Position numbers and translations under genes: made by a program. Positions 1-61,517 of a stretch of 64,000 nt of DNA are shown one piece after another (the stretch's first letter is position 1; every line of letters begins with the position of its first letter). Under the pieces are notes generated by a model. The model ran no database searches. It was not told the DNA's origin and saw only the letters and a list, made by a program, of their open reading frames with translations. Source of the DNA: a virus; the IMG/VR virus record IMGVR_UViG_3300042308_001371, positions 1-64,000 of that record; one strand, written 5' to 3'.

Positions 1-17
1 GGCATGTCTCTTGCATC

Positions 18-86
18 TGCAAGGCCTGTGCCAAGCCAGTGCATGCAAGGCCGGTGCCAAGTGGCCCATGCAAGAACGATGCCAAG
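18..86. repeat. Three imperfect 18-bp direct repeats (iteron-like)
   Basis: Copies of TGCAAGGCCKGTGCCAAG lie at 18-35 and 44-61, and a diverged one (TGCAAGAACGATGCCAAG) at 69-86, giving a period of 25-26 bp. The block is far richer in G+C than the rest of the window and has no credible ORF. Regular spacing next to the end of an operon fits replication iterons, a packaging or terminus site, or foreign DNA. The sequence does not decide between these. Confidence 0.6.
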
Positions 87-112
87 CCACGGACGGCTGA
101 GCTGTGCGGCTA

Positions 113-134
113 GGGGGGGGGGGGGGTGAGGGGG
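113..134. other. G14 homopolymer followed by a G5 run
   Basis: There is an uninterrupted run of 14 G at 113-126, then TGA and a further run of five G at 130-134. Such a tract is unexpected in A+T-rich phage DNA. It could form a G-quadruplex, mark a genome end, or be a homopolymer error or join made during assembly. Its exact length should be treated with caution. Confidence 0.7.
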
Positions 135-198
135 ATAGGAGTGTGGAGTTGAAGGTGAATATGCTCCACAATATATTTCCCACTTTATAGTTAGACTG

Positions 199-399
199 TC
201 ACAATAATTCTTTGATCAACGCAGAGGTAGCTACTTGCACAAGCGTTGGTTGGCTGCTATGCTCATCCCACGTTACAATAGCTTTGAACCCTCTTGACAT
301 GTCCATGTCGTAACCACTAGGAAAAACGCTTCGCTCATGCCAGTCTTTTAATAGCTTAGCATATTCTTCTCCAGTTACCCATTTAATCTTATAATTCAT
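199..399 (-). CDS. Small hypothetical protein with C-terminal SALIKELL tag
   Basis: A 66-residue protein of unknown function and the last gene of the left minus-strand operon. Its start overlaps the stop of the preceding gene by ATGA and is served by an AGGAG lying inside that gene's last codons. It ends in SALIKELL, a member of the octapeptide pattern [ST]-x-L-x-x-[EQ]-L-x-COOH seen in 16 small proteins here. No gene follows it, so the tag cannot be explained as a ribosome-binding site for a neighbour. Confidence 0.7.
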   Translation of the reverse strand: MNYKIKWVTGEEYAKLLKDWHERSVFPSGYDMDMSRGFKAIVTWDEHSSQPTLVQVATSALIKELL

Positions 400-629
400 A
401 ATAACTCCTGCTCTAAGCTACTGAGTTCAGTAATAACCCAGCAATCTGGCACAAACCCAGATAGTCTATAACCGGGATGCCTTACAACTTCGTAAGATAC
501 TAATCCTCCAAACTCGGCATAGGTATTAACCTTACTAGAGATTCTTTTAACAATTATACTAGATTTAAAGCTTGCTGTGCTACCAGAATCAGTATACCAA
601 GTAGCGTTATACCAGACATCTATTTTCAT
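396..629 (-). CDS. Small hypothetical protein with C-terminal SSLEQELL tag
   Basis: 77 residues, rich in beta-forming residues and aromatics (an N-terminal VWYNATWY segment), with no recognised domain. It ends ELSSLEQELL. The codons for the last residues spell AGGAGTTATTATGA and so form a good ribosome-binding site for the next gene. It is coupled by 4-nt overlaps on both sides. It resembles its two upstream neighbours in length and in a short beta-rich body followed by the tag, so gene duplication with fast divergence is plausible. Confidence 0.75.
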   Translation of the reverse strand: MKIDVWYNATWYTDSGSTASFKSSIIVKRISSKVNTYAEFGGLVSYEVVRHPGYRLSGFVPDCWVITELSSLEQELL

Positions 630-871
630 AGTAGCTCAACTTCTAAACTGCTAAGTTCTTCTATTATTTCCCAATCATCTGGGTATAAGTGCATGAAATA
701 TGATTGGTTTAGTAGGTCGTCTCCCATTTTAATAATCTGGGCTTTATAGTAGTATTCGTTATGAGAGTATATCATAGGTTCTTGTATAACTTTAATAGTA
801 TAGATTATTTCATCCCATGGGTCGTATACGGAATTACCCAACTTATATAACTTACCAAGCTTTAGCGTCAC
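626..871 (-). CDS. Small hypothetical protein with C-terminal SSLEVELL tag
   Basis: 81 residues. The N-terminus LGKLYKLGNSVYDPWDEI resembles small beta-barrel 'L..G..Y' starts, and the protein ends IEELSSLEVELL. The start codon is GTG, overlapping the preceding stop. The ribosome-binding site inside that gene's last codons is weak. The downstream gene also has only a weak GAG in these tag codons, although the peptide is fully conserved. Function unknown. Confidence 0.72.
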   Translation of the reverse strand: MTLKLGKLYKLGNSVYDPWDEIIYTIKVIQEPMIYSHNEYYYKAQIIKMGDDLLNQSYFMHLYPDDWEIIEELSSLEVELL

Positions 872-1065
872 AGTAGTTCTTGCTCTAAACTGCTTAATTC
901 CATTACAAACTCACAGTATTGTTCAGATATGACCGTGGTAGTTATTTTAGAAATTTGTTTATCATAGATATATACTAAGAAAGCCGCAGGGCCATAGCGT
1001 TCATATGGCTTTACATAGTACTCTCCATGGTAGTGCCATACCTTATACCAGCGATTAAGCTTCAT
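868..1065 (-). CDS. Small hypothetical protein with C-terminal SSLEQELL tag
   Basis: 65 residues, starting MKLNRWYKVW and ending VMELSSLEQELL. The start is supported by AGGA 8 nt upstream (AGGAAATAGTATATG) in a true 26-nt gap after the preceding gene. It belongs to the tandem group of tagged proteins at 199-1065. No known domain is visible; the aromatic, beta-rich body suggests a small barrel. Confidence 0.74.
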   Translation of the reverse strand: MKLNRWYKVWHYHGEYYVKPYERYGPAAFLVYIYDKQISKITTTVISEQYCEFVMELSSLEQELL

Positions 1066-1091
1066 ATACTATTTCCTATCTACTTGAAATT

Positions 1092-1337
1092 TCAGAATAA
1101 CTCCCTTCCAAGTCCTGTATTCTTAAAGAAAAATACATGCTTCTCTGCTCTCTTAAACTCTTGAGTTTTAGCAACTTGCCTATAATCCCCATATAATCTC
1201 TGGGTAAGTATTCTTATGTTGGCATCTGCTGTAATTAAATAACTGGAATTATTAAGCATTAACTCAACACATCGTTGGAATAGGATTAAACTAGCCTCTT
1301 CTGTGGATATTGTATTCCAGTTATTGATTATACTCAA
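1092..1337 (-). CDS. Small hypothetical protein with C-terminal TGLGRELF tag
   Basis: 81 residues, probably starting at a TTG that overlaps the stop of the preceding 59-residue gene (TTGA), with AGAGAATTAGG just upstream. The body is mainly helical (TEEASLILFQRCVELMLNN). It ends NTGLGRELF, the SLG/GLG variant of the shared tag. The next gene starts 26 nt downstream with its own ribosome-binding site, so these codons are not needed for that role. Function unknown. Confidence 0.65.
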   Translation of the reverse strand: MSIINNWNTISTEEASLILFQRCVELMLNNSSYLITADANIRILTQRLYGDYRQVAKTQEFKRAEKHVFFFKNTGLGRELF

Positions 1338-1513
1338 CCTAATTCTCTGCCGAGAGAGCTTGAGTATAAGTTTTTTCTAATACCAGATACCTGCTCAAGT
1401 ACATCTATTATTTCTTGTGCCGACATTCCAACAACTTGCTCATCTAATTCTTCTGTGCATTCAGTATTATTAATAAGATAGTTAATTAATTTAATCTGTT
1501 TGTTATTATTCAT
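1334..1513 (-). CDS. 59-residue hypothetical protein with C-terminal SSLGRELG tag
   Basis: A short gene starting ATG at 1513, directly after the stop of the 1515-1871 gene, with AGGGAG upstream (AAGGGAGTAGTATG). The sequence begins MNNNKQIKLINYLINN, continues with an acidic helical middle (EELDEQVVG, SAQEIIDVLEQV) and ends YSSSLGRELG. It shares the exact-register C-terminal octapeptide with 15 other small proteins. No known domain. Confidence 0.65.
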   Translation of the reverse strand: MNNNKQIKLINYLINNTECTEELDEQVVGMSAQEIIDVLEQVSGIRKNLYSSSLGRELG

Positions 1514-1514
1514 A

Positions 1515-1871
1515 CTACTCCCTTATTGTTACTGTAAATCCAATAAGTTTTCCATCTTTTATTCTCTTTTTTATAATAAAAGCTCCACCTTGCATGTGGG
1601 TATTGATCAAAACTCCCCTACCCGGAAGATATGGGGCTACTTCTACGTTAGTTTCCCCATCCCCTACTAAGTCAAAGGTTCTATCTAAGGTATTGAAAGG
1701 ATTGAGGGGGTCTACTGGAGTGATGTCTTTAGTCTGTCCTGTAGAAATATCCAGTTCTAATACAGGAGTCTGTGCGAAGAATTGACAATCTCCAATAAAA
1801 AGTACTCCACTATGTATGTTTCCTTTAAGATCCTGCTTTTTTTTCCGTGTTCTTTTAAGTTTAACCGTCAC
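1515..1871 (-). CDS. Hypothetical protein, basic N-terminus
   Basis: 118 residues with a strongly basic start (KLKRTRKKKQ) and a beta-rich body containing a Gly/Pro-rich PYLPGRG. The start is GTG at 1871, well placed behind GAGAGG (7-nt spacing). It has no C-terminal tag (ends FTVTIRE), unlike its neighbours. Not recognised. It sits in the middle of the early-type operon, so an early host-interaction role is likely but unproven. Confidence 0.7.
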   Translation of the reverse strand: MTVKLKRTRKKKQDLKGNIHSGVLFIGDCQFFAQTPVLELDISTGQTKDITPVDPLNPFNTLDRTFDLVGDGETNVEVAPYLPGRGVLINTHMQGGAFIIKKRIKDGKLIGFTVTIRE

Positions 1872-1884
1872 TTGTAACCTCTCG

Positions 1885-2094
1885 TTATATTAATTCTTTA
1901 AGTAAGCTGGGAGGATCGTATATATCTGATGTGTGTATGATACAATATCCCTTTTTATGTAAATATTCAAAAACAAAATCCTCGTCAAAATCCTTTCCTG
2001 TATATATTACATAGCATTTAAAATGTTCTGACCATACAACTTGCCCATGTTTTAGGTCAAATAAGTTTAATTTTTTGCCTTTCTCCTCAAACAT
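1885..2094 (-). CDS. Small hypothetical protein with C-terminal PSLLKELI tag
   Basis: 69 residues. The middle LFDLKHGQVVWSEHFKCYVIYTG looks like a short beta-rich fold, and the protein ends DPPSLLKELI. The start overlaps the end of the preceding gene by 28 nt and has AAAGGTAG upstream. The next gene has its own GAGAGG outside this ORF, so the tag codons are not serving as a ribosome-binding site. Function unknown. Confidence 0.68.
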   Translation of the reverse strand: MFEEKGKKLNLFDLKHGQVVWSEHFKCYVIYTGKDFDEDFVFEYLHKKGYCIIHTSDIYDPPSLLKELI

Positions 2095-2369
2095 ACAATA
2101 CTACCTTTAATTTTGCTCTTATCGCTAGTAATTTCAATAGCATCTTCCATTGCTTTCTCAACTAACTTCTTACCTACGTGTTCTTTTAGAAAATCTTCAA
2201 AGTCAGAGCTTAAATATTTTTGATTTAGCACCGATTGTTCATATTCCAACTCAATAAACCAATCACTTATCCACTCTTCCAATGCTCTTTCACGCATTTC
2301 TGTACAGTTCCAATGTTTTTGATCGGTCATCCGTGCAATCCTGCGTAGTGCTTGTAGGGCATCTTTCAT
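2067..2369 (-). CDS. Hypothetical helical protein
   Basis: 100 residues, predicted largely helical, beginning MKDALQALRRIARMTDQKHWN and ending in a basic LRRKAKN. It starts immediately after the stop of the upstream gene; the GGAG inside that gene's LLELK codons is its ribosome-binding site. The length and charged helices resemble small phage regulatory or inhibitor proteins, but no family is recognised. Confidence 0.68.
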   Translation of the reverse strand: MKDALQALRRIARMTDQKHWNCTEMRERALEEWISDWFIELEYEQSVLNQKYLSSDFEDFLKEHVGKKLVEKAMEDAIEITSDKSKIKGSIVCLRRKAKN

Positions 2370-2597
2370 TTACTTAAGCTCCAAAAGAAGGGGGGTTTCT
2401 TTTTTCATATTTTCAATAAACTTAAGATAGTTCTGCTTAGTTTCAGGACTTACTAAGTAAACATAGCCCTTTTCTCCCCCATCAAATACCTCATCAGTCC
2501 ATAAATATGCAAGATTACAACACATATAGGGAGTTGCCTCTACGCTATAACCAGAGAAGTATAGTGTTAAAAACGTTTGTTCGTTAATCTTAATCAT
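2370..2597 (-). CDS. Small hypothetical protein with C-terminal TPLLLELK
   Basis: 75 residues from the ATG at 2597; a GTG three codons upstream is an alternative start. The ribosome-binding site is weak in both cases. The body is beta-rich (INEQTFLTLYFSGYSVEATPY). It ends ETPLLLELK, which fits the shared C-terminal pattern in register, and the GGAG in these codons feeds the next gene. It is preceded by a small region with a perfect -10 box and two direct repeats. Confidence 0.62.
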   Translation of the reverse strand: MIKINEQTFLTLYFSGYSVEATPYMCCNLAYLWTDEVFDGGEKGYVYLVSPETKQNYLKFIENMKKETPLLLELK

Positions 2598-2690
2598 ATG
2601 TGTCACTTTTTACCATTGTGAGTGTACTTTGATGTGTCACTGTGGCACAAACTTAGCTACACTTCATAAAATCATTCGTCACGTATTATA
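2598..2690 (-). promoter_or_regulatory. Candidate minus-strand promoter with 10-bp direct repeats
   Basis: On the minus strand a consensus TATAAT lies at 2690-2685, about 90 nt before the ATG at 2597. No good -35 box is seen 17 nt upstream. Downstream, AGTGACACAT occurs twice in direct orientation (minus-strand reading of 2641-2632 and 2607-2598). Paired repeats between a -10 box and a start codon look like an operator, but this is inference from pattern only. Confidence 0.35.
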
Positions 2691-3315: not shown

Positions 3316-4773
3316 ATGGCTAAACCAATAGTAGGTATGGGTGATGATGAGCTTTTAGATTTAATATCTAAAGCAAAGTCCAATGATGATATTCAAAAAA
3401 TACTACTAAATTCCGGTAGGGATCTATCTGATGCACAGGCTTTGAACTCTGATGTGCTAGGTTCTTTAATAGAAAAAAGATTTGGAACAGAAGAAGTAAG
3501 GTCTTCTGCGGCACTTAATGATTACCTAACCAAAATAAAACAATCAGATTATCCTGCATTAGATGAGACCCGAAGACTGCTATATCCAGACGCTAAAGAT
3601 GTCTCAGCTACTTATGGAAAGGGTTATTTTGGAGACGGTACGTTTTATGGAAACCCTACTTTGGAAACTCCTATTAGATTAGGAGGTACTCCTATAACTA
3701 ACGATGATTATACAGATGCTAGAGCAAAAAGAGTTCTTGGACATGAACTATCGCATGCAAATGACTTATTAGCTATTCACTTAAAACGACTTCAAAAAGC
3801 AGATCCCGAGCAATATAAAAAATTAACTGAACGTATTGGAAATATTAGTAGAGGTGGAGAAGCTTTCTTGCAGCATTCTGAAAATATAGCAAATAGATAC
3901 CCAACCGCTGCTGCTAATATGCTTACTCCAGAAAAAGCTGATATTTTAGAATCGATAATTAGAGATCAGTCTCCATCTGTATCTAGGGAAAAACATCTCC
4001 AATTAATTAATAATTATAAAAAAGCATTGACGCAAGAAACGCCCGATTCTCCTGATAAAGCTTTAATGGAAAGGTATATGGGAGTAGATCGCAAGAAAAT
4101 ACCTGATGTTCCGGGAGAAGCTGTACAATTCACTCCAGATAGGGAGTATGTGACTAAGGCCTTGGAGTCTGAATTTGATCCAATAAAAGCAGAGTCTATT
4201 AGGTCTCAAGGTCACCATGCTACTAGACCAGACATAGCGGATGACGTAGGTCATTATGAAGGCAGAAATATTAAAAGGCTCTCTAAAGGGGATGGCTTGT
4301 TAGGAGTAACTGGTCCATTAGGAGCTGCTGTAGAATCAGTAAAAGATCTATATAAAGAAGCTCCTATAGAAGAAAGTTCTAAGCTAGGTAGGCTACATGG
4401 AATTTCCACAGTAGCTGCTAAAGCTTTAGGTCCATTAGCAATTGCTTCTGGAGTTATACCAGTGGCGGCTGACATAAAAGAGGGAAAACCTAATACGGCT
4501 TTAGCTAGAGCTGTTTCTTATGCTGCTCCAATGGGTGCAGAAGATTTAACTGATAAACTTATGCAAACTGCTGATATTAGTGATACTTCCCCGGAATTAC
4601 AAGATCCTGAATATAGAAAGCTTCTAATGCGGATTGGTCAAAAGAGAGTAGAGCGAGGAGGTTCTCCAGTTATTAAAAGTTTCTCCGGAAGAGAAGTAGA
4701 TACATCTAAGACAGAAGATAGTGATTTTTTAAATAGAATTAAGGCACTGCAAGATTTGAAAACACAAGGATAG
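3316..4773 (+). CDS. Putative virion protein with HExxH metalloprotease-like motif
   Basis: 485 residues, starting three bases after the previous gene. A zincin signature HELSH occurs at residues 143-147 in the context VLGHELSHANDLL. The flanking regions are helical and charged. The second half has an Ala/Gly-rich hydrophobic stretch (residues ~360-395). Position at the head of the late region, and a mix of hydrophilic and membrane-active-looking segments, suggest a virion or ejected protein; a peptidoglycan or capsid-processing protease is possible. No third zinc ligand can be assigned with confidence. Confidence 0.7.
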   Translation: MAKPIVGMGDDELLDLISKAKSNDDIQKILLNSGRDLSDAQALNSDVLGSLIEKRFGTEEVRSSAALNDYLTKIKQSDYPALDETRRLLYPDAKDVSATYGKGYFGDGTFYGNPTLETPIRLGGTPITNDDYTDARAKRVLGHELSHANDLLAIHLKRLQKADPEQYKKLTERIGNISRGGEAFLQHSENIANRYPTAAANMLTPEKADILESIIRDQSPSVSREKHLQLINNYKKALTQETPDSPDKALMERYMGVDRKKIPDVPGEAVQFTPDREYVTKALESEFDPIKAESIRSQGHHATRPDIADDVGHYEGRNIKRLSKGDGLLGVTGPLGAAVESVKDLYKEAPIEESSKLGRLHGISTVAAKALGPLAIASGVIPVAADIKEGKPNTALARAVSYAAPMGAEDLTDKLMQTADISDTSPELQDPEYRKLLMRIGQKRVERGGSPVIKSFSGREVDTSKTEDSDFLNRIKALQDLKTQG

Positions 4774-5601: not shown

Positions 5602-5946
5602 ATGAGCGTATACCACCAACTTGATAATCTTGAAATTGAAAAGCTTAGAAAAAAAGTAGCTGAACTTGAGCTAGAACTATCTAAAGCTCATTCATTACTA
5701 CAGGACAATGATTTATTTGAAGATTTACCTACAATTTCTGATGAAGAAGTAATTTGTGTCAGTGAAATTCATAAGTTAAGAATCGCGTCAGATAATGGAA
5801 TTCTCACTTTAGAGGATGTTAAAGTATTAGATCTACTTGTTAAAAATCTTCTTGCAATTAGAGGAAAGCCAATAGAGGAAAAGAAAGAGAAGAAGAAGGG
5901 TGCTAAATCTGTTGCCGAGCTTCTCAGCATTGTTGATAGAAGATGA
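5602..5946 (+). CDS. terS: Probable terminase small subunit
   Basis: 114 residues from the ATG at 5602, preceded by AAGGATAG; an upstream in-frame start at 5557 lies inside the previous gene. The N-terminal coiled coil (LEIEKLRKKVAELELELSKAH) is followed by an acidic stretch, a helical LRIASDNGILTLEDVKVLDLL and a lysine-rich tail. It overlaps the terminase large subunit by ATGA. Gene position, length and oligomerising coiled coil support a small terminase, which recognises DNA for packaging. The identification is contextual. Confidence 0.6.
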   Translation: MSVYHQLDNLEIEKLRKKVAELELELSKAHSLLQDNDLFEDLPTISDEEVICVSEIHKLRIASDNGILTLEDVKVLDLLVKNLLAIRGKPIEEKKEKKKGAKSVAELLSIVDRR

Positions 5947-7427
5947 GTGAAAAAAAAGAAAGACCTATTTCTAGAGACGAAGCCGTTGTTCAATTATGGG
6001 AGCATGCTGTCTTAGATTATAAATTAACAGAGCCTCAGAAAATTATTAAGAAAGGCATTCTTGAAGATAGTAGTAAGATAAGTGTAGTAATGTGTGCCAG
6101 ACGATTAGGTAAAAGTTATTTAGCTTTATCTATGGCAATAGAGGCATGCCTAAAAGTTCCTGATACTATTGTTAAGTATGTGTTTCCTAAACAAAAAGCT
6201 GCTAAGAAAAACATTATTCCAATAATGAAAACTATTTTGGAAGATTGTCCAAAGCATTTACGTCCTATATTCATGGCGGCTGATCTACTGTATAAATTTC
6301 CAAATGGAAGTGAACTGCAAATGGCTGGTTCGGATAACGGTAACATCGAAAGTATTCGAGGTGGTAACTCTAGTTTAAATATTGTAGATGAGGCTGGATT
6401 TTGTGATGATTTAACATATGCAGTTAGATCTGTGCTTGCTCCAACTACAAAGCTAACGCAGGGTAGAACAATTCTAGTTTCAACCCCTTCAAGGTATGAA
6501 GATCACGAGTTTGTACAGGATTGGGCTTTAAAGTATCAAGCAGAAGGTCGTATTAGAGTATTTACTATTTTCGACAACCCGCAATTTACAGAAGCAATTA
6601 TCAAAGACGCTTTGGATGATTACCCAGATGGTGAGAAAGATCCGGGCTTTAGGCGTGAGTATATGTGTGAAATTGTAAGAAGTGCAGATACTTCTATTCT
6701 ACCTTCATTCAGTTCTGACGTTGAAAAAGTTATCGTAAGATCGGATTATCCTAGACCTATATTCTATGACTCCTATGTTTCTATGGATATTGGGGGATCT
6801 GACTTAACAGCTGTTTTATTTGGATATTATGATTATCTAAATGCTACTACTGTAATTGAAGATGAGCTTATATTTGGTAAAGAAGTAAATACAAAAGCAG
6901 TCGCAGAAGCAATAAGAATAAAAGAATCTCAATTATGGAGGAATACAATAGACGAAAGTGTAATTCCACCGTATCTAAGAATTGCTGATAACAACAATTT
7001 AATTATGTTAACAGACTTACAAAGAGATCATGGGATAACTTTTATCCCAACTAGAAAAGATAACAGGGAAGCTGCTATCAATGCTTTAGACGTAGCATTA
7101 TCTCAGCATAAGGTAGTAATTCATCCTAGATGTACTCATACCTTGTATCATATGAAATTTGCTAGGTGGGATAAGAATAGAAGAAATTTTTTAAAGATTA
7201 AAGATTCCCCCTCAGGTCAAATTAAGGGTGGACACGCGGATGCCCTAGCTGCTATAATCTACTTACATAGGAATATAATAAAAAGTAAAAATCCATACCC
7301 AGTCGGATATGGAGATATTTCTGGATCTGGCGTATTTACATCTCAGCTTAAAAAAGATGAATCAAAAGACAAGTCTGTGAAATCATGGCTATCTAGTATG
7401 GTTTGGAGAAAAGATAGCACTAAGTAG
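5943..7427 (+). CDS. terL: Terminase large subunit
   Basis: 494 residues. The ATPase that drives DNA into the procapsid and the nuclease that cuts concatemers. Walker A-type CARRLGKS at residues 51-58, Walker B LNIVDE at 145-150. The RNase H-like nuclease domain has MDIGGSD (Asp 282), an IADN acidic residue near 349 and HADALAA (Asp 433). Normal length for the family. It is translationally coupled to the small subunit by a 4-nt overlap and followed by the portal. Confidence 0.95.
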   Translation: MSEKKERPISRDEAVVQLWEHAVLDYKLTEPQKIIKKGILEDSSKISVVMCARRLGKSYLALSMAIEACLKVPDTIVKYVFPKQKAAKKNIIPIMKTILEDCPKHLRPIFMAADLLYKFPNGSELQMAGSDNGNIESIRGGNSSLNIVDEAGFCDDLTYAVRSVLAPTTKLTQGRTILVSTPSRYEDHEFVQDWALKYQAEGRIRVFTIFDNPQFTEAIIKDALDDYPDGEKDPGFRREYMCEIVRSADTSILPSFSSDVEKVIVRSDYPRPIFYDSYVSMDIGGSDLTAVLFGYYDYLNATTVIEDELIFGKEVNTKAVAEAIRIKESQLWRNTIDESVIPPYLRIADNNNLIMLTDLQRDHGITFIPTRKDNREAAINALDVALSQHKVVIHPRCTHTLYHMKFARWDKNRRNFLKIKDSPSGQIKGGHADALAAIIYLHRNIIKSKNPYPVGYGDISGSGVFTSQLKKDESKDKSVKSWLSSMVWRKDSTK

Positions 7428-7457
7428 TTGATTATTCAGCGTATCATTTGCATATAG

Positions 7458-7475
7458 CACCCTTAGTTAATAGAA
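7458..7475 (+). promoter_or_regulatory. CACCCTTATA element, copy 3 (variant)
   Basis: AGCACCCTTAGTTAATAG lies 17 nt before the portal ATG, between terminase and portal. It deviates from the other copies at the two bases after CACCCTTA (GT instead of TA) but keeps the flanking AG and TAATAG. Confidence 0.5.
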
Positions 7476-7491
7476 AAGTAAAGGAATTTAC

Positions 7492-9651
7492 ATGGCTTAT
7501 TATGATAAAAATGAATATTTTGCAGCAAGTGATGATGAGACATTAGTCCTTTATTTACAAAAAAAATCAGATGCTTGGTTTAATTCTCTTATATCTACAG
7601 ATTATTTAGATAAGATTAAAAGAAGTTGGCAAGCATACTACGGCTTCTTCTATGAAGGTGGCCATGCTATTACCTTTGGTGGAGAGACTGGAGAATTAGT
7701 AAATCTACCTATGAACCATTATGGGAACATTGCAAGTCATATCCTAACTATGGTTACTGCTACTAGACCATCTTTTCAAGCAAGATCTGTTAATACTGAT
7801 GTTAGATCTCAGATTCAGACAAATCTAGCCAATGGTCTTTTAGAATATTACATGCGGGATAAAAGATTAGAGCAAGATTTAAAAAGAGCTGTTGAATATG
7901 CTATTGTCATGGGTGCGGGCTATATTAAAATGGAGTGGAACGCTACTACTGGTGAAGTGTATGACTTTATTGAGCCAGAATATAAGCCACTTGTTGACGA
8001 AAGTGGAAACATGCAATACGGTCCTGACGGAGAAGTTATATTTGAAACTGACGAAGATGGCGAAAAGGTTGAACTTAGAGCAGGAGTTCCATTATACAGC
8101 GGTGATATTATATTTAATGTTATGTCGCCTTTTGATGTAGTTTTTGATCCAACTAGATCTGATAGTAATCATGATTGGCAGTTATGTAGAAGTTTTAAAA
8201 ATAAATTTGATTTAATTGCTAAATATCCAGAATTTTCTGAAAAAATTAAAGCTTTAAAAACTAAGTCTGACTTAAATACTACTCGTATTACTATGTCAGC
8301 TTATGATGAAACTACAGATGTTCCAGTTTATGAATTTTTTCATAGACCTACAGAATCACTGCCTAAAGGTAGATATGTTCTATATCTAGACAATGATATT
8401 GTTCTTGAAGATACAGTATTGGTATATAAAAAACTTCCTGTATTTAGAATTGCTTCTAGAGATATTATCGGTACGCCTTTTAGTTATACAGCTATGTTTG
8501 ACCTATTACCAATTCAAGATGCTGTAAACTCTCTCTATTCTACTATTATGACTAACCAAAATACGTTTGGTGTTCAAAACGTATATGTAGAAAGAGGGTC
8601 TGATGTTCAGATGGAACAGATTTCAGATGGACTAAACTTTATTCAAGGTAATCCGGGATTTCAACCTCCTAAAGCTTTAAATCTAACGTCTACTCCTGCA
8701 GAAATATTTAACTTTTTAAAAATGTTAGAATCTTCAATGGAAACTATATCTGGAGTAAATTCGGTTGCTCGTGGTAATCCAGAAGCTCAGCTTACGTCAG
8801 GTAATGCTCTAGCATTAATCCAATCTCAAGCTTTACAGTTTATTTCAGGACTTCAGCAATCATATATACAATTAATTGAAGATGTTGGTACGAATGTTGT
8901 AGAACTTCTTAAAACTTTTGCAAAAACTCCTAGAGTTGCCGCAATTGCTGGTAAATCTAATGTAACTTATATGAAAGAGTTTACATCAGATGATCTTAGC
9001 TCTATTACAAGAGTTATTGTTGATGCGGGTAATGCTCTCGCTCAAACTACAGCTGGAAGAGTAGAAATGGCATCTCAAATGATGCAAATGAGTATTATTA
9101 CTACTCCTGAGCAGTATATATCTGTTATTAATACAGGTAAATTAGAAACTATGACAGAAGGTCAGAACAAGGAGTTATTGCTTGTCAGAGCTGAAAGAGA
9201 ACGCCTTGTGGACGGTACAACTCCCGTGGTGGCTGTACTTACTGATTCTCACTCATTGCATATTAGAGAGCATAAGGCTGTTCTCGCAGATCCTGATTTA
9301 CGTATGGATGCGCAGCTTGTTCAACGAACACTTGCCCATATCCAAGAGCACATTGATATCTTATCTGATCCTAATGTTGCTAATATTCTTACTTTGTTAG
9401 GCGAAACACCTTTAGGGCCAATTGGCGGGGGTATTCCTTCTCCGCAAGCTGCAGCTCCTCAACAGCCTAATCAGCAAGGTCAAGAACAAATTCCTCCATT
9501 ATTAGAAAATCCAGAAGCACAGTCTGTTGCTGTACAACAAAATATGGGACCACTACCTAGTCCAGCACAACCAGCTGGAGTAGCTCAGGGTATATTACCT
9601 GCACAACCAACCACGCCAGAACAACTGGCTATAAATAACTTAGGAGTATAG
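7492..9651 (+). CDS. Portal protein
   Basis: 719 residues, the length of P22-type portals. It forms the dodecameric ring at one capsid vertex through which DNA enters and leaves. The segment DVVFDPTRSDSNHDWQLCRSF is characteristic of the family; an Ala/Gln-rich helical region follows (residues ~415-560), and the C-terminus is Pro/Gln-rich (residues ~645-700). The start has AAGGAATTTAC. It lies between terminase and scaffold as expected. Confidence 0.9.
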   Translation: MAYYDKNEYFAASDDETLVLYLQKKSDAWFNSLISTDYLDKIKRSWQAYYGFFYEGGHAITFGGETGELVNLPMNHYGNIASHILTMVTATRPSFQARSVNTDVRSQIQTNLANGLLEYYMRDKRLEQDLKRAVEYAIVMGAGYIKMEWNATTGEVYDFIEPEYKPLVDESGNMQYGPDGEVIFETDEDGEKVELRAGVPLYSGDIIFNVMSPFDVVFDPTRSDSNHDWQLCRSFKNKFDLIAKYPEFSEKIKALKTKSDLNTTRITMSAYDETTDVPVYEFFHRPTESLPKGRYVLYLDNDIVLEDTVLVYKKLPVFRIASRDIIGTPFSYTAMFDLLPIQDAVNSLYSTIMTNQNTFGVQNVYVERGSDVQMEQISDGLNFIQGNPGFQPPKALNLTSTPAEIFNFLKMLESSMETISGVNSVARGNPEAQLTSGNALALIQSQALQFISGLQQSYIQLIEDVGTNVVELLKTFAKTPRVAAIAGKSNVTYMKEFTSDDLSSITRVIVDAGNALAQTTAGRVEMASQMMQMSIITTPEQYISVINTGKLETMTEGQNKELLLVRAERERLVDGTTPVVAVLTDSHSLHIREHKAVLADPDLRMDAQLVQRTLAHIQEHIDILSDPNVANILTLLGETPLGPIGGGIPSPQAAAPQQPNQQGQEQIPPLLENPEAQSVAVQQNMGPLPSPAQPAGVAQGILPAQPTTPEQLAINNLGV

Positions 9652-9652
9652 T

Positions 9653-9700
9653 ATGGCTAAATGTGGATCAAAAAAAGGTAAAGGCAAGAAAGGTAAGTAG
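9653..9700 (+). CDS. Tiny basic peptide (15 residues)
   Basis: ATG at 9653 sits directly behind the portal stop with AGGAG 7 nt upstream (AGGAGTATAGTATG). The product is MAKCGSKKGKGKKGK. Very small Lys/Gly-rich ORFs directly after the portal occur in other podoviruses. This one is supported by the strong ribosome-binding site and exact fit between portal and HNH gene, but translation is unproven. Confidence 0.45.
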   Translation: MAKCGSKKGKGKKGK

Positions 9701-9701
9701 T

Positions 9702-45430: not shown

Positions 45431-45533
45431 GCCTCTCCTCCATTCCAGTATAAAGCTTATGACACGCTAAGAATCCTATCATAAATGATAAGAACATAGA
45501 AGTTATAAATGTCCCCCAGTTCATATCCTTCAT
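45381..45533 (-). CDS. Short putative lipoprotein (50 residues)
   Basis: ATG overlaps the stop of the ClpX-like gene (TAATG). The sequence starts MKDMNWGTFITSMFLSFMIG and continues FLAC-HKLYTGMEERR: a hydrophobic segment ending in an LAC lipobox-like triplet. It overlaps the next gene by 50 nt. A short lipoprotein overlapping another envelope-type ORF recalls an Rz1-type spanin arrangement, but no partner coiled-coil i-spanin is obvious. Confidence 0.45.
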   Translation of the reverse strand: MKDMNWGTFITSMFLSFMIGFLACHKLYTGMEERRDIIDLRGNNTSLHGP

Positions 45534-46459
45534 TAGTATACCCACTTAGGCTTACCACTCAGCACTACCATGGAGTCTAGCGTGAATTTCTTTGGTTTAA
45601 TTGCTAAACTAGGAGCTTCAAACTGAGCGTTTAGCAACGCTTCATCTAATACGCTATGCAAGCCTCTAGCTCCTAATCCCTTCTCAATAGCCTTCTGAGC
45701 TATGATATTAATAGCACTATCCTGTACTACAAGCTCAATACCTTCGCTCAAAAACCACTCTTTAAATGAGTTTAAGATAGATCCCTTGGAGTCACGTAGG
45801 ATCTTCCTGTAATCATCAAATTTAAGCTCCTGAAGCTGCGTGATAACTGGGAATCTTCCCAAGAATTCTGGGATCATTCCAAAATCCATAAGAGTAGGAA
45901 CTGAAGCAGACTCTAGACCCACAAAAGCTCCAGAGCATATAAACATAATATCTTTAGTATTCATTTTTTTATCGTACTCCCCATTCTGAGAATATCTAGA
46001 AATATATGGAACATCGCTACCTTCTAGTAGTTTTAAAAGAGATTGCTGTACGCCAAGTCCGTTAACATCAGCTCCTCCGTCTTGACTAGTCTTCTTCTTA
46101 ATTTTATCTATTTCATCAATGTAGATAATTGATTTAGAAGCTTTCTTTTCATCTCCCTCACAAATACCTAGCAGATCGGTAATAAGTTCTTCAACACTCC
46201 TACCCTGATATCCAGAAGAAGTAAACTGAGTTGCATCGCTTGTCAAGAAACTTACTCCAAGAATTCTAGATAAGATAGAAACTAGGTAAGTCTTACCACA
46301 TCCAGTAGGTCCAATTAGAAGCACGTTAGATTTTTTTATTGTACTACCATTCATTCTTTTAAAATGATTATATGCAGCAACTGATAAAGATCTTTTAGTC
46401 TTTTCATGACCAATCACGTACTCATCTAATTCTTTTTTAATTTGCTCTGGGGTTTTCAT
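45533..46459 (-). CDS. clpX-like: ClpX-like AAA+ unfoldase lacking zinc domain and ClpP-docking loop
   Basis: 308 residues. The AAA+ module aligns throughout with bacterial ClpX: LDEYVIGHEKTK, Walker A GPTGCGKT (50-57), pore loop GYQG (83-86), Walker B IIYIDEID (111-118), GAFVGLE, arginine-finger EFLGRFP (~199-204), sensor-2 GARGL (263-267). The N-terminal zinc domain is absent. The stretch between GAFVGLE and DFGMIPEF, which in ClpX holds the IGF ClpP-binding loop, is cut to a few residues. It probably unfolds or remodels proteins without delivering them to ClpP. Confidence 0.9.
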   Translation of the reverse strand: MKTPEQIKKELDEYVIGHEKTKRSLSVAAYNHFKRMNGSTIKKSNVLLIGPTGCGKTYLVSILSRILGVSFLTSDATQFTSSGYQGRSVEELITDLLGICEGDEKKASKSIIYIDEIDKIKKKTSQDGGADVNGLGVQQSLLKLLEGSDVPYISRYSQNGEYDKKMNTKDIMFICSGAFVGLESASVPTLMDFGMIPEFLGRFPVITQLQELKFDDYRKILRDSKGSILNSFKEWFLSEGIELVVQDSAINIIAQKAIEKGLGARGLHSVLDEALLNAQFEAPSLAIKPKKFTLDSMVVLSGKPKWVY

Positions 46460-48382: not shown

Positions 48383-48688
48383 TTATTTTATTAAAATAAC
48401 TCCATTATCAAAACCGCCTCTTTCCAAGCACTTATCTTCTCTTTTTTTAAATACTTCTTCTACAATATTTTGCTTAACTACTAAAGCTTTTAAAACTTCT
48501 AAAACATCAGCTAACTCTTCTATCAGATTTTCATTACTGGTAGCATTTAATACCTCATTAGCTTCTTCTACTAATTTATTCTTTAATAATAAAAGCATTT
48601 CATCTTCGGAAGCTACTCTAGTAACTAAAGTATCTCCTCTCTCCTTAAATACAAACTCCACAATTTTATCTCTTACCAACTTTTCCAT
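48383..48688 (-). CDS. MazG-like nucleotide pyrophosphohydrolase
   Basis: 101 residues. KLVRDKIVEFV, then LLKNKLVEEANEVL and NLIEELADVLEVLKAL match the helical EExxE/ExxD metal-binding pattern of all-alpha NTP pyrophosphohydrolases (PRA-PH/MazG group). Such enzymes hydrolyse (d)NTPs or the alarmone pool, and phages use them to tune nucleotide levels. The start overlaps the tagged small gene upstream by one base. Confidence 0.82.
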   Translation of the reverse strand: MEKLVRDKIVEFVFKERGDTLVTRVASEDEMLLLLKNKLVEEANEVLNATSNENLIEELADVLEVLKALVVKQNIVEEVFKKREDKCLERGGFDNGVILIK

Positions 48689-48843
48689 TAAAATAACTCT
48701 TTTCCAAGGGATGTTTTTTTTAATTCTATCTCTGCTTCACGAATACTAAGGATCTCTATAGCTTCTTCTACAGATAAACAATTAGACTCTAGTAAAATCA
48801 TTAGTATTCGAATATCAGGGATACTAGAAGTAGGAAAGCTCAT
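48688..48843 (-). CDS. 51-residue protein with C-terminal TSLGKELF tag
   Basis: ATG at 48843 overlaps the HNH stop (ATGA); the stop overlaps the MazG-like start (TAATG). Two helical parts: SSIPDIRILMILLESN and SVEEAIEILSIREAEIEL. Ends KKTSLGKELF, the same register as the tag family at 199-2597 and 52-61 kb. The GAG in the tag codons can serve the next gene. Confidence 0.66.
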   Translation of the reverse strand: MSFPTSSIPDIRILMILLESNCLSVEEAIEILSIREAEIELKKTSLGKELF

Positions 48844-51714: not shown

Positions 51715-52500
51715 TTATTTACTCCTATAAGCTTTTAATGCATCCTGTACAACTTCAGTCTTATCGAACTCAGATAGAACTATAAATAATTCTTCTGTAG
51801 CAAGTACGTCCATTTTGTTGTACAGCTCCATTTCTTTCCATGCAGCAACATTACCTTTACCACACTCGTCCCACAGCATGAATCCCGGAAACTTACTATG
51901 TGCTAACTTCTTAAGCTTACAGAACTTCTTAGACATCCACTCAAGCTTATTGCTAACAAATTTAAAATGTTTTTTAGCTAATTTTAAAGTATCTATTTTT
52001 TTATAATCACTAGGACTTCCTAGTTTATATTCTAAGAACTTAGCATTGAGCTTTTTAATATCAAAACTATCAGAATTTTGACCTATGATGATATCAGCCT
52101 CATCCATTAACTTCCAAATAGGCTTTAGTAGTTCCTTTTCTTTTGACTTATTGCCCTTAACATCTTTATAAAGAACCTCATTAGAATCAATCCACTTAGC
52201 ACTCCAAGAGAAGATGCCGCCTTCATCTACTATCTGATTAAGGGATATATTTTGATCAAATAACCCCCAAACCTTAGCAGTCATGGGTTTAGTTTCAATA
52301 TCTAGAATTAATACTTTTCTAGGTGATTTTTCAATAGAAGAGCCATACACTTCGATGCAATGCTTTATAGAATCCTGAGTTCTTACATTAGCAGGGTATT
52401 TGTCATTAAACTTCCTAGCAATATCTTTTCTAGAAAATCCTCTCCTATGAAGATTTAAAACAAAATTAATTTCTTTTGTAAGCCAAGATTTCTTAATCAT
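51715..52500 (-). CDS. DEDD-type 3'-5' exonuclease with N-terminal helix-turn-helix
   Basis: 261 residues. Residues 1-55 look like a helix-turn-helix (LNLHRRGFSRKDIARKFND). The rest is an RNase H-like exonuclease: LILDIETKP (Exo I Asp-Glu), IIIGQNSDSFDIKKLN (Exo II), KIDTLKLAKKHF and later YNKMDVLATEELF (Exo III-type Asp). Resembles the free-standing family-B-type exonuclease proteins of phages. Complements the polymerase at 57-59 kb in DNA metabolism. Confidence 0.83.
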   Translation of the reverse strand: MIKKSWLTKEINFVLNLHRRGFSRKDIARKFNDKYPANVRTQDSIKHCIEVYGSSIEKSPRKVLILDIETKPMTAKVWGLFDQNISLNQIVDEGGIFSWSAKWIDSNEVLYKDVKGNKSKEKELLKPIWKLMDEADIIIGQNSDSFDIKKLNAKFLEYKLGSPSDYKKIDTLKLAKKHFKFVSNKLEWMSKKFCKLKKLAHSKFPGFMLWDECGKGNVAAWKEMELYNKMDVLATEELFIVLSEFDKTEVVQDALKAYRSK

Positions 52501-52796
52501 TCTAGTTCCTTTAATAATCCAGTTTTCTTTTTAATTCTAGACTCGTGGTAATAAGCTTCTATCATTCTAACACCAGTTGCCTTAACTGGTAAACAAAAAT
52601 ATGTATAAGGCCTAGCATTACTGGTTATCATAAGAATTTCAAATTCTATATCACTAATCATAACGTATTCATTTATCTTAAATTTAGGCTTTTTAACCTT
52701 CCTATATATCCAATAGTAAAATTGCACGAACTTGTATCCATGCATGAGTATCATATTTAGCGTAAGTAGTATAGATAGTATAGTAATAGTTACCAT
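52497..52796 (-). CDS. Membrane-anchored protein with C-terminal TGLLKELE tag
   Basis: 99 residues. N-terminal hydrophobic helix (TITILSILLTLNMILMHGY), then a beta-rich cytosolic-type domain with KPKFKINEYVMISDIEFEIL. Ends KKTGLLKELE, the shared C-terminal octapeptide; the AAGGA in these codons serves the next gene. It is the only tag-bearing member with a clear membrane helix. Confidence 0.68.
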   Translation of the reverse strand: MVTITILSILLTLNMILMHGYKFVQFYYWIYRKVKKPKFKINEYVMISDIEFEILMITSNARPYTYFCLPVKATGVRMIEAYYHESRIKKKTGLLKELE

Positions 52797-54641: not shown

Positions 54642-54875
54642 TTATAAAAGCTCTTTTTCTAAACTTGATATTTTTCTTATAAATTCATCCTCATAGCAAT
54701 AGCACTCATTCACTGGCATCTCGTTAGCTTCCAGATCCAACCATTTAATACTAATAATGCCATCCCTATAGTCTAATATTAAATAATGCGCATCAGCACT
54801 ATCGTCAAACCATATATCCCCAACTTCAAAATTCTTCTTTTCCCCATTTTTCATAAATTTCTTTTTTAACTCCAC
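54642..54875 (-). CDS. Small hypothetical protein with C-terminal SSLEKELL tag
   Basis: 77 residues from 54875, or 70 from the ATG at 54854. Body FEVGDIWFDDSADAHYLILDYRDG looks like a small beta domain, and it ends RKISSLEKELL. The next gene starts 20 nt downstream with its own AAAGGAA, so the tag codons have no ribosome-binding role here. It overlaps the upstream gene by 50 nt. Confidence 0.68.
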   Translation of the reverse strand: MELKKKFMKNGEKKNFEVGDIWFDDSADAHYLILDYRDGIISIKWLDLEANEMPVNECYCYEDEFIRKISSLEKELL

Positions 54876-55484: not shown

Positions 55485-55679
55485 TTATTCGAGTTCTTTT
55501 CCTAGAGAGGTTCTTCGCAGTAACTCCTGACCTAATTCTTCATCCGTAAATTCGCTTAATATAGAGTAGTCTTTTAGATAACCCCAGTACCCATCTATCC
55601 CTACTTTATACGTAGTTAGCTTAGGGTACAATTCCTCTAATTCTATCTTAGTCTTTTTTGTTGTCATCTTTGTTACCAT
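55485..55679 (-). CDS. Small hypothetical protein with C-terminal TSLGKELE tag
   Basis: 64 residues, or 60 from the second ATG at 55667. Body IELEELYPKLTTYKVGIDGYWGYL. It carries the tag twice in tandem form: EELGQELLRR then TSLGKELE at the end. The next gene starts 28 nt downstream, so the tag is not a ribosome-binding site. Overlaps the upstream membrane gene by 32 nt. Confidence 0.64.
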   Translation of the reverse strand: MVTKMTTKKTKIELEELYPKLTTYKVGIDGYWGYLKDYSILSEFTDEELGQELLRRTSLGKELE

Positions 55680-59633: not shown

Positions 59634-59831
59634 TTAGAGTAGTTCTTTTAATAAATTAGAGGCAGGGGAATACTTCTTCTTAAACTGAGCAGAGTTTACA
59701 GTCCACATGCCCTTAGATCCATCCTTTATATTACAAAACTCATAGGTAACATCGTCGTAGATTATAATGAGTATTATAGCAGAATACGTGAAGTCCTTAC
59801 GGATGTAACACTTTCCCTCTTCTAATTTCAT
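59634..59831 (-). CDS. Small protein with C-terminal SNLLKELL tag
   Basis: 65 residues, MKLEEGKCYIRKDFTYSAII opening like the other beta-barrel-like members; ends PASNLLKELL. The next gene (polymerase) has its ribosome-binding site beyond the stop, so the tag is not an RBS. Start overlaps the previous gene by 4 nt. Confidence 0.72.
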   Translation of the reverse strand: MKLEEGKCYIRKDFTYSAIILIIIYDDVTYEFCNIKDGSKGMWTVNSAQFKKKYSPASNLLKELL

Positions 59832-60046
59832 AATAACTCCATCATTAGCGAGCTATGGTATTTCCCGTCTACCCAATATTTTATACCATCTATGTTTATT
59901 AAGTATACAAAACGTAATCCAAACGGATCTATTGCTTCAATTGGGTGAATCGTTCCGATTATATTAGCAGCTTTAGTTGGGCATAGGGTTAGTATGTTAG
60001 TAACTACTATTATATCATTTATATTTAAATTCTTTATACTTCCCAT
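59828..60046 (-). CDS. Small protein with C-terminal SSLMMELL tag
   Basis: 72 residues, beta-rich (LNINDIIVVTNILTLCPTK; FVYLINIDGIKYWVDG), ends KYHSSLMMELL. ATGA overlap with the next gene, GGAG contributed by the tag codons. The start overlaps the previous gene by 13 nt. Confidence 0.7.
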   Translation of the reverse strand: MGSIKNLNINDIIVVTNILTLCPTKAANIIGTIHPIEAIDPFGLRFVYLINIDGIKYWVDGKYHSSLMMELL

Positions 60047-60285
60047 CCAAAATCCCCATAAGCTAATAAATAAATGGATTCGGCTTTAAGTCTTTCAAGT
60101 TTGCTTATTTTACCAGTTTTAAAATAATTAACTATTATATCCTCTATGTCATCCATATTATGAAATCCTGCTAGAATATTATTACACTCATCTAGCAAAG
60201 CGTCATCACTTAAGCTATCTAATTCCATATAAAGAGTATCACTCTCAAAACATATATCATTATAGTCTACTAGAGTTTGTTTCAT
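60034..60285 (-). CDS. Small acidic helical protein
   Basis: 83 residues, acidic first half (YMELDSLSDDALLDECNN), helical throughout, ends FGWEV (no tag). ATGA overlap with the upstream tagged gene. Sits among replication genes; function unknown. Confidence 0.68.
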   Translation of the reverse strand: MKQTLVDYNDICFESDTLYMELDSLSDDALLDECNNILAGFHNMDDIEDIIVNYFKTGKISKLERLKAESIYLLAYGDFGWEV

Positions 60286-60509
60286 AATAATTGTCTCTCC
60301 AATGATGAAAGTGGAAGAATAAACACATCATCTGTAAAATGTGTATATAAAATTCCCATTACGTTATCATAGTATCGTATTCTTACTTTAAAGTCATCTA
60401 CTTCTTCTAATACAATAAACCAAAATGTGCTATCACTAGTATCTTCATTTAAAGAATACCGTTCATTAATTATCAAATTATTTGTTTTTGTCTTTTGCAA
60501 TAGTACCAT
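60282..60509 (-). CDS. Small protein with C-terminal SSLERQLL tag
   Basis: 75 residues from the ATG at 60509; the start is uncertain, as it overlaps the primase gene by 32 nt with no strong RBS. Beta-rich body (STFWFIVLEEVDDFKVRIRYY); ends LPLSSLERQLL with Gln at the usual Glu position. Confidence 0.66.
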   Translation of the reverse strand: MVLLQKTKTNNLIINERYSLNEDTSDSTFWFIVLEEVDDFKVRIRYYDNVMGILYTHFTDDVFILPLSSLERQLL

Positions 60510-61332
60510 CTTTTATAGATCTTTTAATTTGATACATATCTTTTTTATCTAAATCTTGAGGAGAAATTTTAGACATAACCTCCTCTATTATTGTAGCATC
60601 AACACCAGAAAGGGCAAGTGAAAAGACGCATGCATTTAATGAATTAATCCACAATCCCGATAATCCAGTATGTGCATTGGTCAAGAAGAATTCAACCGCT
60701 TCAGGTATAGTATCCCTTTCCTTGCCATATAATAATTTAACTATTTCGGAAAGCTCCTCGGGTACAATGACTTGTGCTTCATTTAAATTGTACTTAGCTT
60801 CTATAACCTCTTTAGCTTTTTTAGGAATTAGAAACTCACCATCCTGCCAAAATCCATCATCTATCTTAGAAGGGCAGTAGTACCTAGCAGTATCGGAACA
60901 CTGCCTGTCAAGTTCTGGGAATTTTTCAGATAGCCAGTTCCAAGTCTCATCAAAATCCTTTGAATTTAAAATAGTCTTAGCTAATGGAAATACTAGCCTA
61001 AACTTATGTAACTCATTAGTATGACTAGGACTTGGCAGACATAGGCAGGATAATCCAATTTGCTGTATTCTATGCTCAGCTTGTGGAATAGTTAAACCAC
61101 TGTCTACATCTAAAGTCATAAAATCAGTAGATATAAAATGCTCATCAAGCCTAGTTCCAGAAAATATACTGGGACTCCAAGCATAGGATGATATATAAGA
61201 TATTAGATCTTCTTCATTTATAATATCAACTACTTTAGGCAAATTAGGAGTAGAGGCAAGGAATGCTTGCTGTATTTTATCTTGTTTATTCTTAGGTAAG
61301 AAATTAGCTAAGGGATATATTGATAGTCTCAT
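60478..61332 (-). CDS. Archaeo-eukaryotic (AEP) type primase
   Basis: 284 residues. AEP motifs: MTLDVDSG with Asp 75 and Asp 77 (motif I, metal binding), LPSPSH at ~99-104 (motif II), KFRLVFPL and SDTARYYCPSK (motif III-like region). A helical C-terminal part (VEFFLTNAHTGLSGLWINSLN) may be a PriCT-like domain. It makes RNA or DNA primers for the polymerase. Overlaps its neighbour by 4 nt; lies between polymerase and helicase. Confidence 0.8.
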   Translation of the reverse strand: MRLSIYPLANFLPKNKQDKIQQAFLASTPNLPKVVDIINEEDLISYISSYAWSPSIFSGTRLDEHFISTDFMTLDVDSGLTIPQAEHRIQQIGLSCLCLPSPSHTNELHKFRLVFPLAKTILNSKDFDETWNWLSEKFPELDRQCSDTARYYCPSKIDDGFWQDGEFLIPKKAKEVIEAKYNLNEAQVIVPEELSEIVKLLYGKERDTIPEAVEFFLTNAHTGLSGLWINSLNACVFSLALSGVDATIIEEVMSKISPQDLDKKDMYQIKRSIKDGTIAKDKNK

Positions 61333-61517
61333 AATAATTGTATTTCCAATGATGATAGTTTTACTAATCCCATTTCAAAATTAGACTTATAATACCACGA
61401 AGTTTCTCTAAAGATAGATGAATTATATTTTATTACAACAAAAACTAATTGATCAGTAACTTCAGTTATTTCAAATATAGCCCAATAATCATTTCTGTAT
61501 ATATCCCCTTTTTTCAC
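61329..61517 (-). CDS. Small protein with C-terminal SSLEIQLL tag
   Basis: 62 residues, GTG start overlapping the helicase stop; its RBS GGAGATCT lies in the helicase's SGDL codons. MKKGDIYRNDYWAIFEITEV is a beta-barrel-like opening. Ends VKLSSLEIQLL. Overlaps the primase start by ATGA. Confidence 0.72.
   Translation of the reverse strand: MKKGDIYRNDYWAIFEITEVTDQLVFVVIKYNSSIFRETSWYYKSNFEMGLVKLSSLEIQLL

What the first reader, a model, noticed from the sequence alone, without database searches (positions are those of the whole stretch)
199..2597. Sixteen small proteins share an exact-register C-terminal octapeptide
The pattern [S/T]-x-L-x-x-[E/Q]-L-x-COOH ends sixteen minus-strand proteins: SALIKELL (199), SSLEQELL (396), SSLEVELL (626), SSLEQELL (868), TGLGRELF (1092), SSLGRELG (1334), PSLLKELI (1885, Pro first), TPLLLELK (2370), TSLGKELF (48688), TGLLKELE (52497), SSLEKELL (54642), TSLGKELE (55485), SNLLKELL (59634), SSLMMELL (59828), SSLERQLL (60282), SSLEIQLL (61329). 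The protein bodies are otherwise dissimilar, and many look like tiny beta-barrels. The GAG/GGAG codons often serve as the next gene's ribosome-binding site, but in at least six cases (199, 1092, 1885, 54642, 55485, 59634) no start codon lies in range or the next gene has its own site. So selection on the peptide itself seems likely: a docking tag, degron, or assembly signal shared by an early-protein family. I know of no described phage system with this feature.
Basis: partly seen in the sequence, partly recalled or inferred. Interest (0 to 1): 0.88.

Follow-up and report, generated by a model that had tools for sequence, protein, structure and literature searches.

The report
Phage-private C-terminal docking tags
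A group of uncultured phages puts the same short peptide on the end of dozens of otherwise unrelated small proteins, and each phage lineage uses its own version of that peptide, which suggests one shared, fast-evolving binding partner inside the infected cell that nobody has described.

Summary
All 16 proteins end as described, and the full 81.8-kb record has 24, all on the replication-gene strand (22 matches to the stated pattern against 0.02 expected). Relatives settle the peptide-versus-ribosome-site question. Across 125 orthologue pairs averaging 46% body identity, Leu3 and Leu7 never change, and codons of positions 3, 6 and 7 show 226 synonymous against 12 amino-acid changes.

The new finding is that the tag is lineage-private and switches in concert. 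Position 6 is Glu/Gln in the window's group and Ala/Val/Thr in two relatives, including the same orthologues on unrelated bodies (TGLGRELF to TGLGRTLF; TSLGKELN to TSLGKALL). Three further relatives carry HPxLVKLWxLD, TPL[ED]xL[LIM] or LxRWxLP tags. The phage-by-tag matrix is almost block-diagonal. This implies one common reader per phage.

The phage ClpX-like protein is absent from tagged relatives, so it is not the general reader. The best lead is the untagged 100-aa protein at 2067-2369. It occurs in every tagged lineage and in none of three untagged near-complete relatives, and its residue 88 changes K/(I,V)/E as tag position 6 changes E/A/K. That lead is weak statistically. The cellular role is inferred.

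The parts
199..399 (-). 66-aa protein ending SALIKELL; positional counterpart by eye in G008 (9675-9857) ends TELMKALL (no BLAST reciprocal hit)
396..629 (-). 77-aa small protein ending SSLEQELL
626..871 (-). 81-aa SH3-like barrel ending SSLEVELL; tag is the C-terminal helix (residues 75-80); orthologues in 6 relatives keep [EQ]LSSLExEL[LF] while the more distant bodies fall to 38-46% identity
868..1065 (-). 65-aa small protein ending SSLEQELL
1092..1337 (-). 81-aa (long form) protein ending TGLGRELF; orthologue in G010 (75% identical) ends TGLGRTLF; no coupled downstream start
1334..1513 (-). 59-aa protein, helical by sequence, ending SSLGRELG; orthologues TSLGKELN (G004), TSLGKALL (G010), TELGRALL (G008)
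1515..1871 (-).
1885..2094 (-). 69-aa protein ending PSLLKELI; orthologue in G010 ends PSLIKVLL
2067..2369 (-). Candidate tag reader: untagged 100-aa protein in every tagged lineage; residue 88 is K in E-type phages, I/V in A-type, E in K-type
2370..2606 (-). 78-aa protein ending TPLLLELK; tagged gene in the same position of G008 (11377-11526) ends RPLLKALL
45533..46459 (-). ClpX/AAA-like ATPase without a zinc-binding domain match; found only in E-type phages and G022, absent from tagged G008 and G007, so not the general reader
48688..48843 (-). 51-aa protein ending TSLGKELF
52497..52796 (-). 99-aa protein, N-terminal hydrophobic stretch, ending TGLLKELE
54642..54875 (-). 77-aa protein ending SSLEKELL; orthologue in G008 ends TDLTKALL; no coupled downstream start
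55485..55679 (-). 64-aa protein, helical by sequence, ending TSLGKELE
59634..59831 (-). 65-aa small protein ending SNLLKELL
59828..60046 (-). 72-aa small protein ending SSLMMELL
60282..60509 (-). 75-aa small protein ending SSLERQLL
61329..61517 (-). 62-aa small protein ending SSLEIQLL

Best explanation
The octapeptide is a short C-terminal docking helix, [S/T]-x-L-x-x-E-L-x, grafted onto many fast-evolving small early phage proteins. All copies in one phage are bound by one common partner, and the residue at tag position 6 sets the match with that partner. When the partner's pocket changes, all tags in that phage change with it, so each lineage has a private tag/reader pair. SHOWN: protein-level selection on the tag; its sharing by unrelated bodies; the concerted switch of position 6 across orthologues; lineage-private versions. 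INFERRED: that a single reader exists; that it is phage-encoded rather than host-encoded; that the best candidate is the 100-aa protein at 2067-2369. INFERRED and least certain: that the small proteins are interchangeable target-binding arms (host takeover or anti-defence) recruited to one hub.
For: Exact register far beyond chance. Tag codons: 226 synonymous against 12 nonsynonymous differences at positions 3, 6 and 7, with Leu3 and Leu7 100% kept, while bodies average 46% identity. Ser is written with both AGY and TCN codons. Position 6 among early-strand genes ending LxxxLx: E/Q 16 of 20 in G000; A 30 of 32 in G008; A/V 7 of 7 in G010. The same orthologues switch: TGLGRELF to TGLGRTLF (75% body identity), TSLGKELN to TSLGKALL or TELGRALL, PSLIKELL to PSLIKVLL, TSLEMELM to SSLEKALC, SSLEKELL to TDLTKALL, SSLIKELM to TPLIETLV. 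The cross-matrix of tag types against phages is nearly block-diagonal: E 24/20/24/5/13/9/11/5 in the E-type phages; A 8 in G010 and 36 in G008; HPxLxKL 13 only in G007; PLxxL[LIM] 5 only in G013; RWxLP 15 only in G014. Reader lead: among 70 conserved families tested, 2067 is the only non-structural one found in G007, G013 and G014 yet absent from G016 and G019. It also has the single column K / I,V / E that mirrors tag position 6.
Against: No binding partner has been shown. The charge-swap column is a single residue, and two such columns occur in about 4,300 scanned, so chance is not excluded. The distribution of 2067 is phylogenetically confounded (one clade), and G013 and G014 are partial contigs. 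Its model is only pLDDT 70 with no convincing PDB match. In the barrel proteins part of the tag's conservation could be structural, because it is predicted as an ordered helix.
Confidence: 0.72

Rival explanations
1. The tag is a C-terminal degron: tagged early proteins are removed after the early phase by a protease or adaptor that reads the peptide.
For: It would explain one short peptide on many unrelated small proteins. The phage encodes ClpX-like and ClpP-like proteins.
Against: Phage ClpX-like is absent from tagged G008 and G007. The ClpP-like protein has a hydrophobic, signal-like N-terminus. Tags tolerate extra residues after them (G010 SSLEKALCIGY, G007). A degron read by a conserved host protease would not be expected to switch in concert between close relatives. 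Tag ends do not resemble ssrA ends.
Confidence: 0.13
2. The tagged proteins are paralogues of one SH3-like barrel family and the tag is a conserved folding element of that fold.
For: In G007 21 of 55 and in G008 15 of 630 body pairs are detectably related. AF2 places the tag as an ordered C-terminal helix on a barrel.
Against: In the window's phage only 1 of 276 body pairs is related. Bodies that look helical (1334, 55485, G008 10529 and 65910) carry the same tag, and orthologues of 1334 make the same position-6 switch. A folding element would not change at one residue in concert across different bodies.
Confidence: 0.1
3. The tag is a loading signal that packs the small proteins into the phage head for injection, as the encapsulin cargo-loading peptide does on an HK97-fold shell.
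For: Short shared C-terminal peptides on unrelated cargoes are how encapsulin loading works (PMC7355545). The phage is tailed, with a terminase, portal and capsid-protein module.
Against: Tagged genes lie on the replication strand, not the structural one. The capsid protein is 88-91% identical between E-type phages and 89% to the A-type G010, with 5 fixed E/A differences, of which only 2 also differ in the K-type phage. The 11116 head-module protein has none.
Confidence: 0.07
4. The tag helices bind each other and build a hetero-oligomer, so all copies must match.
For: Mutual binding also predicts concerted change.
Against: The conserved face is about one and a half helical turns (L3, E6, L7), short for a self-assembling helix. 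Faces that all carry E, or all carry K, would repel rather than pair. Both points are inference.
Confidence: 0.06
5. The sequence reflects ribosome-binding sites: GGAG near stop codons that overlap the next start, read by chance as E-L-L.
For: Most tagged genes overlap or abut the next start (21 of 24 in G000, permissive test). In G014 the RWx codons include TGGA.
Against: GAA and GAG are both common at position 6 regardless of coupling. Positions 1-3 are conserved with AGY/TCN and TTR/CTN codon switching. The A-type tag has GCN at position 6. Uncoupled genes keep the peptide.
Confidence: 0.02

Closest known systems
Encapsulin cargo-loading peptide (PMC7355545)
   Same: A peptide of about 10 aa, usually C-terminal, shared by unrelated cargo proteins and docked in a hydrophobic pocket of one partner.
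   Different: Here up to 36 tagged proteins per genome, on early-strand phage genes, with a tag version private to each lineage. The major capsid protein shows almost no change that tracks the tag.
SspB and its C-terminal ClpX-binding (XB) tail (PMC12373786)
   Same: An adaptor whose C-terminal peptide docks on a shared machine. That the SspB domain is a small beta-barrel is from memory.
   Different: SspB is one adaptor and its tail binds the ClpX zinc-binding domain. Here there are dozens of proteins, the phage ClpX-like protein gives no zinc-domain match, and it is missing in tagged relatives.
ssrA-type C-terminal degrons
   Same: One short C-terminal peptide on many proteins, read in trans.
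   Different: Genome-encoded rather than added by tmRNA; different ends; extra residues tolerated after the tag; version differs between close relatives.
Bacterial sliding-clamp binding motif (QLxLF; consensus from memory)
   Same: A short motif that lets many proteins share one hub.
   Different: Tag L-x-x-E-L-x lacks the Q and the L-F pair in register, and its A, K, L and W versions do not fit.

Membership tests
ssrA/ClpXP C-terminal degron | hydrophobic small-residue end such as LAA at the free carboxyl terminus | tested here: not met
   Ends are LL, LF, LG, LK, LE, LT, LI; G007 and a G010 orthologue have residues after the tag
ssrA/ClpXP C-terminal degron | tagged proteins are degraded by ClpXP | not testable with these tools
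   needs half-life measurement
phage-encoded ClpX as reader | ClpX-like gene present wherever tags are present | tested here: not met
   HMM of 45533 finds G000, G009, G002, G004 and G022 only; G008 and G007 (84.7 and 79.6 kb) lack it
SspB-type ClpX adaptor | partner ClpX carries the zinc-binding domain that holds the tail | tested here: not met
   Pfam scan of 45533 gives AAA domains but no zinc-binding ClpX domain; host ClpX untested
SspB-type ClpX adaptor | small beta-barrel body with C-terminal docking peptide | tested here: inconclusive
   626-871 is an SH3-like barrel with terminal helix, but other tagged bodies look helical
Encapsulin cargo-loading peptide | shared C-terminal peptide on unrelated proteins | tested here: met
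Encapsulin cargo-loading peptide | docks on an HK97-fold shell | tested here: inconclusive
   Major capsid protein has 5 E/A fixed differences in 418 and no charge-swap column; binding not testable
Sliding-clamp binding motif | QLxLF-like pentapeptide | tested here: not met
   read directly from the tags
Known small phage protein families (Pfam, PHROGs) | profile match | tested here: not met
   10 tagged proteins: no Pfam match over cut-off; best PHROGs matches E 0.001-0.01, to families of unknown function

The most novel reading that the evidence does not exclude
Each phage in this clade runs a private lock-and-key network: a phage-encoded hub (product of 2067-2369 and its homologues) captures 5 to 36 small effector proteins through a C-terminal helix. 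Tag position 6 and hub residue 88 form the specificity pair (E:K, A:I/V, K:E), so relatives cannot use one another's effectors.
Probability: 0.25. Interest if true: 0.95.

Novelty: categorically new. Interest (0 to 1): 0.87.

Why it matters
Small early phage genes are a very large pool of unknown viral proteins, and they are usually studied one at a time. Here up to a quarter of a phage's genes carry the same read-in-trans label, and the label was replaced wholesale several times within one phage clade. That gives a direct handle, one bait peptide per phage, on what dozens of unknown proteins have in common. It is also a natural case of one-to-many co-evolution of a short linear motif in a prokaryotic virus.

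Tried and rejected
(1) Ribosome-site artefact: rejected on codon evidence. (2) Phage ClpX-like as general reader: rejected on distribution. (3) MoxR/VWA pair (70432, 69145) as reader: present in tagged phages, but the ATPase is also widespread in unrelated phages and neither has a charge-swap column; not favoured. (4) Proteins 1515 and 2696 as reader: no column separates the E from the A type. (5) Host search: no GTDB contig encodes the terminase; nearest cultured record is 29% identical at the terminase. (6) More relatives through 2067, 1515 or MoxR profiles: same contigs, plus two unrelated ones. (7) tblastn of 2067, 1515 and a tagged barrel against 50,697 phage records: no match. (9) De novo C-terminal motif search in T4 1-45 kb and KVP40 1-100 kb as controls: no shared tag. 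(10) PDB fold search of the 2067 model: nothing convincing. (11) Literature searches found no description, but the held library lacks most subscription papers.
Full report
WHAT IS THERE. The window is bases 1-64,000 of an 81,765-bp IMG/VR phage record. Late structural genes lie on the plus strand and replication genes (DNA polymerase A, DnaB-like ATPase, ERF annealing protein, B12-type RNR) on the minus strand. All lie on the replication strand. In 60 dinucleotide shuffles the stated pattern appears 0.017 times on average, against 22 observed. Within the same proteins it is found 15 times at the C-terminus and never at offsets of 1-30 residues. With the tag removed, only 1 of 276 protein pairs is detectably related.

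PEPTIDE, NOT NUCLEOTIDES. Relatives were gathered from IMG/VR by terminase and capsid protein, and contigs were read whole or nearly so. In 125 reciprocal-best orthologue pairs within the window's group below 75% identity, bodies average 46% identity, Leu3 and Leu7 are kept in 100%, and position 6 in 90%. The codons of these three positions differ synonymously 226 times and non-synonymously 12 times. Ser and Leu use both of their codon boxes, and GAA and GAG are both common at position 6 whether or not the next gene is coupled. The ribosome-site reading cannot explain this.

THE TAG IS LINEAGE-PRIVATE. The most informative result was not in the finding. In G008 (terminase 62% identical, 84.7 kb) 36 early proteins end in an [ST][EPD]LxxALx-like tag, with Ala where the window's phage has Glu. 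G010 has the A/V/T version. In G007 (79.6 kb) 13 proteins carry HP[IT]L[VI]KL[WY]xLD a few residues before the end. In G013 five end [TN]PL[ED]xL[LIM]. In G014 fifteen overlapping micro-ORFs in 2.6 kb end LxRWx[LIM]P or nearly so, with Arg written as AGR or CGN, and three more proteins share L[DE]I[YW][KQ]ALT. A matrix of six tag patterns by phage is almost block-diagonal. Three untagged near-complete relatives (G016, G017, G019) have none, nor do T4 1-45 kb or KVP40 1-100 kb.

THE SWITCH IS CONCERTED AMONG ORTHOLOGUES. Orthologues of different families, including one that looks helical by sequence, change position 6 together when the lineage changes. 1092 goes from TGLGRELF to TGLGRTLF with 75% body identity, as close as within the E group. 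1334-family proteins go from TSLGKELN to TSLGKALL (G010) and TELGRALL (G008). 1885-family proteins go from PSLIKELL to PSLIKVLL. 72565 goes from TSLEMELM to SSLEKALC. 54642 goes from SSLEKELL to TDLTKALL. 64780 goes from SSLIKELM to TPLIETLV. Common descent of bodies does not produce this. A single trans-acting partner whose pocket changed can. This step is inference, but it is the simplest reading.

STRUCTURE. AlphaFold2 on the 626-871 family gives an SH3-like barrel (pLDDT 86) with the tag as a terminal helix at residues 75-80. Foldseek finds PWWP, tudor and other SH3-like barrels and many small unnamed phage proteins, none below E 0.001. Leu3, position 6 and Leu7 would fall on one helical face, as in a docking motif. 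In G007 and one G010 orthologue residues follow the tag, so a free carboxylate is not essential.

WHO READS IT. The phage ClpX-like protein occurs only in E-type phages and G022, so it is not the general reader. A phage-encoded reader must occur in all tagged phages and must differ between tag types. Of 70 conserved families, 1515 and 2696 show no column separating the types. The MoxR ATPase is common in unrelated phages. The 100-aa protein 2067-2369, untagged and lying among tagged genes, is the only non-structural family detected in G007, G013 and G014 but not in G016 or G019. Its residue 88 is Lys in all eight E-type contigs, Ile/Val in A-type, and Glu in the Lys-tag phage; it is Thr in G013 and probably Ala in G014. 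This is a lead. About 4,300 columns were scanned, one other charge-swap column of this kind exists (in a late protein), the phages form one clade, and G013 and G014 are partial.

WHAT IT PROBABLY DOES. The tagged proteins are small (median 66-74 aa in four phages), fast-evolving, on the early strand, and the ten scanned have no confident relatives in Pfam or PHROGs. That fits interchangeable host-takeover or anti-defence arms recruited to one hub. This last step is inference from gene character alone. Degron, fold-element, head-loading and self-assembly alternatives are weighed in the rivals.

NOVELTY. Shared C-terminal peptides are known (encapsulin loading, ssrA, SspB tail), but in the searches made here (open-licence papers only) no phage was found in which a quarter of the genes carry a private tag that is replaced wholesale between relatives.

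Noticed in passing
G016/G017 (L099-L103, L146-L150), e.g. G016 1050-1427, 3339-3917, 78605-79258: About nine ankyrin-repeat proteins in one phage share an N-terminal NDLNNDLITFSRxGHLAVVQYL-like stretch and a C-terminal VVQYLKNVIKKG-like stretch; a different multi-copy family in an untagged relative.
   Followed up: no
L114 (G014) 7411-10003: Fifteen overlapping micro-ORFs of 38-61 aa in tandem, each ending LxRWx[LIM]P or nearly so; next start overlaps the stop (CCATGA).
   Followed up: partly
window 47543-48307: ClpP-like protease with a hydrophobic signal-like N-terminus, conserved in tagged relatives (53-58% identity) and present in G019.
   Followed up: no
L002 7145-8338 and 8432-9619 (record 69145-71619): MoxR-type AAA ATPase next to a VWA/metallopeptidase-like protein; homologues of the ATPase in 276 described phage records.
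   Followed up: partly
window 1-180: Record end carries a poly-C/G run and short repeats (cttgcatg, tggcac) unlike the rest; possibly an assembly end artefact.
   Followed up: no
window 5943-7427: Large terminase of A-type G010 is only 66% identical to E-type phages although its capsid protein is 89% identical, so packaging and head genes have different histories.
   Followed up: no
record 75303-75620 (L002): One early protein in the E-type record ends SSLENALN, an A-like tag, as do its A-type orthologues; a possible exception to the rule.
   Followed up: no
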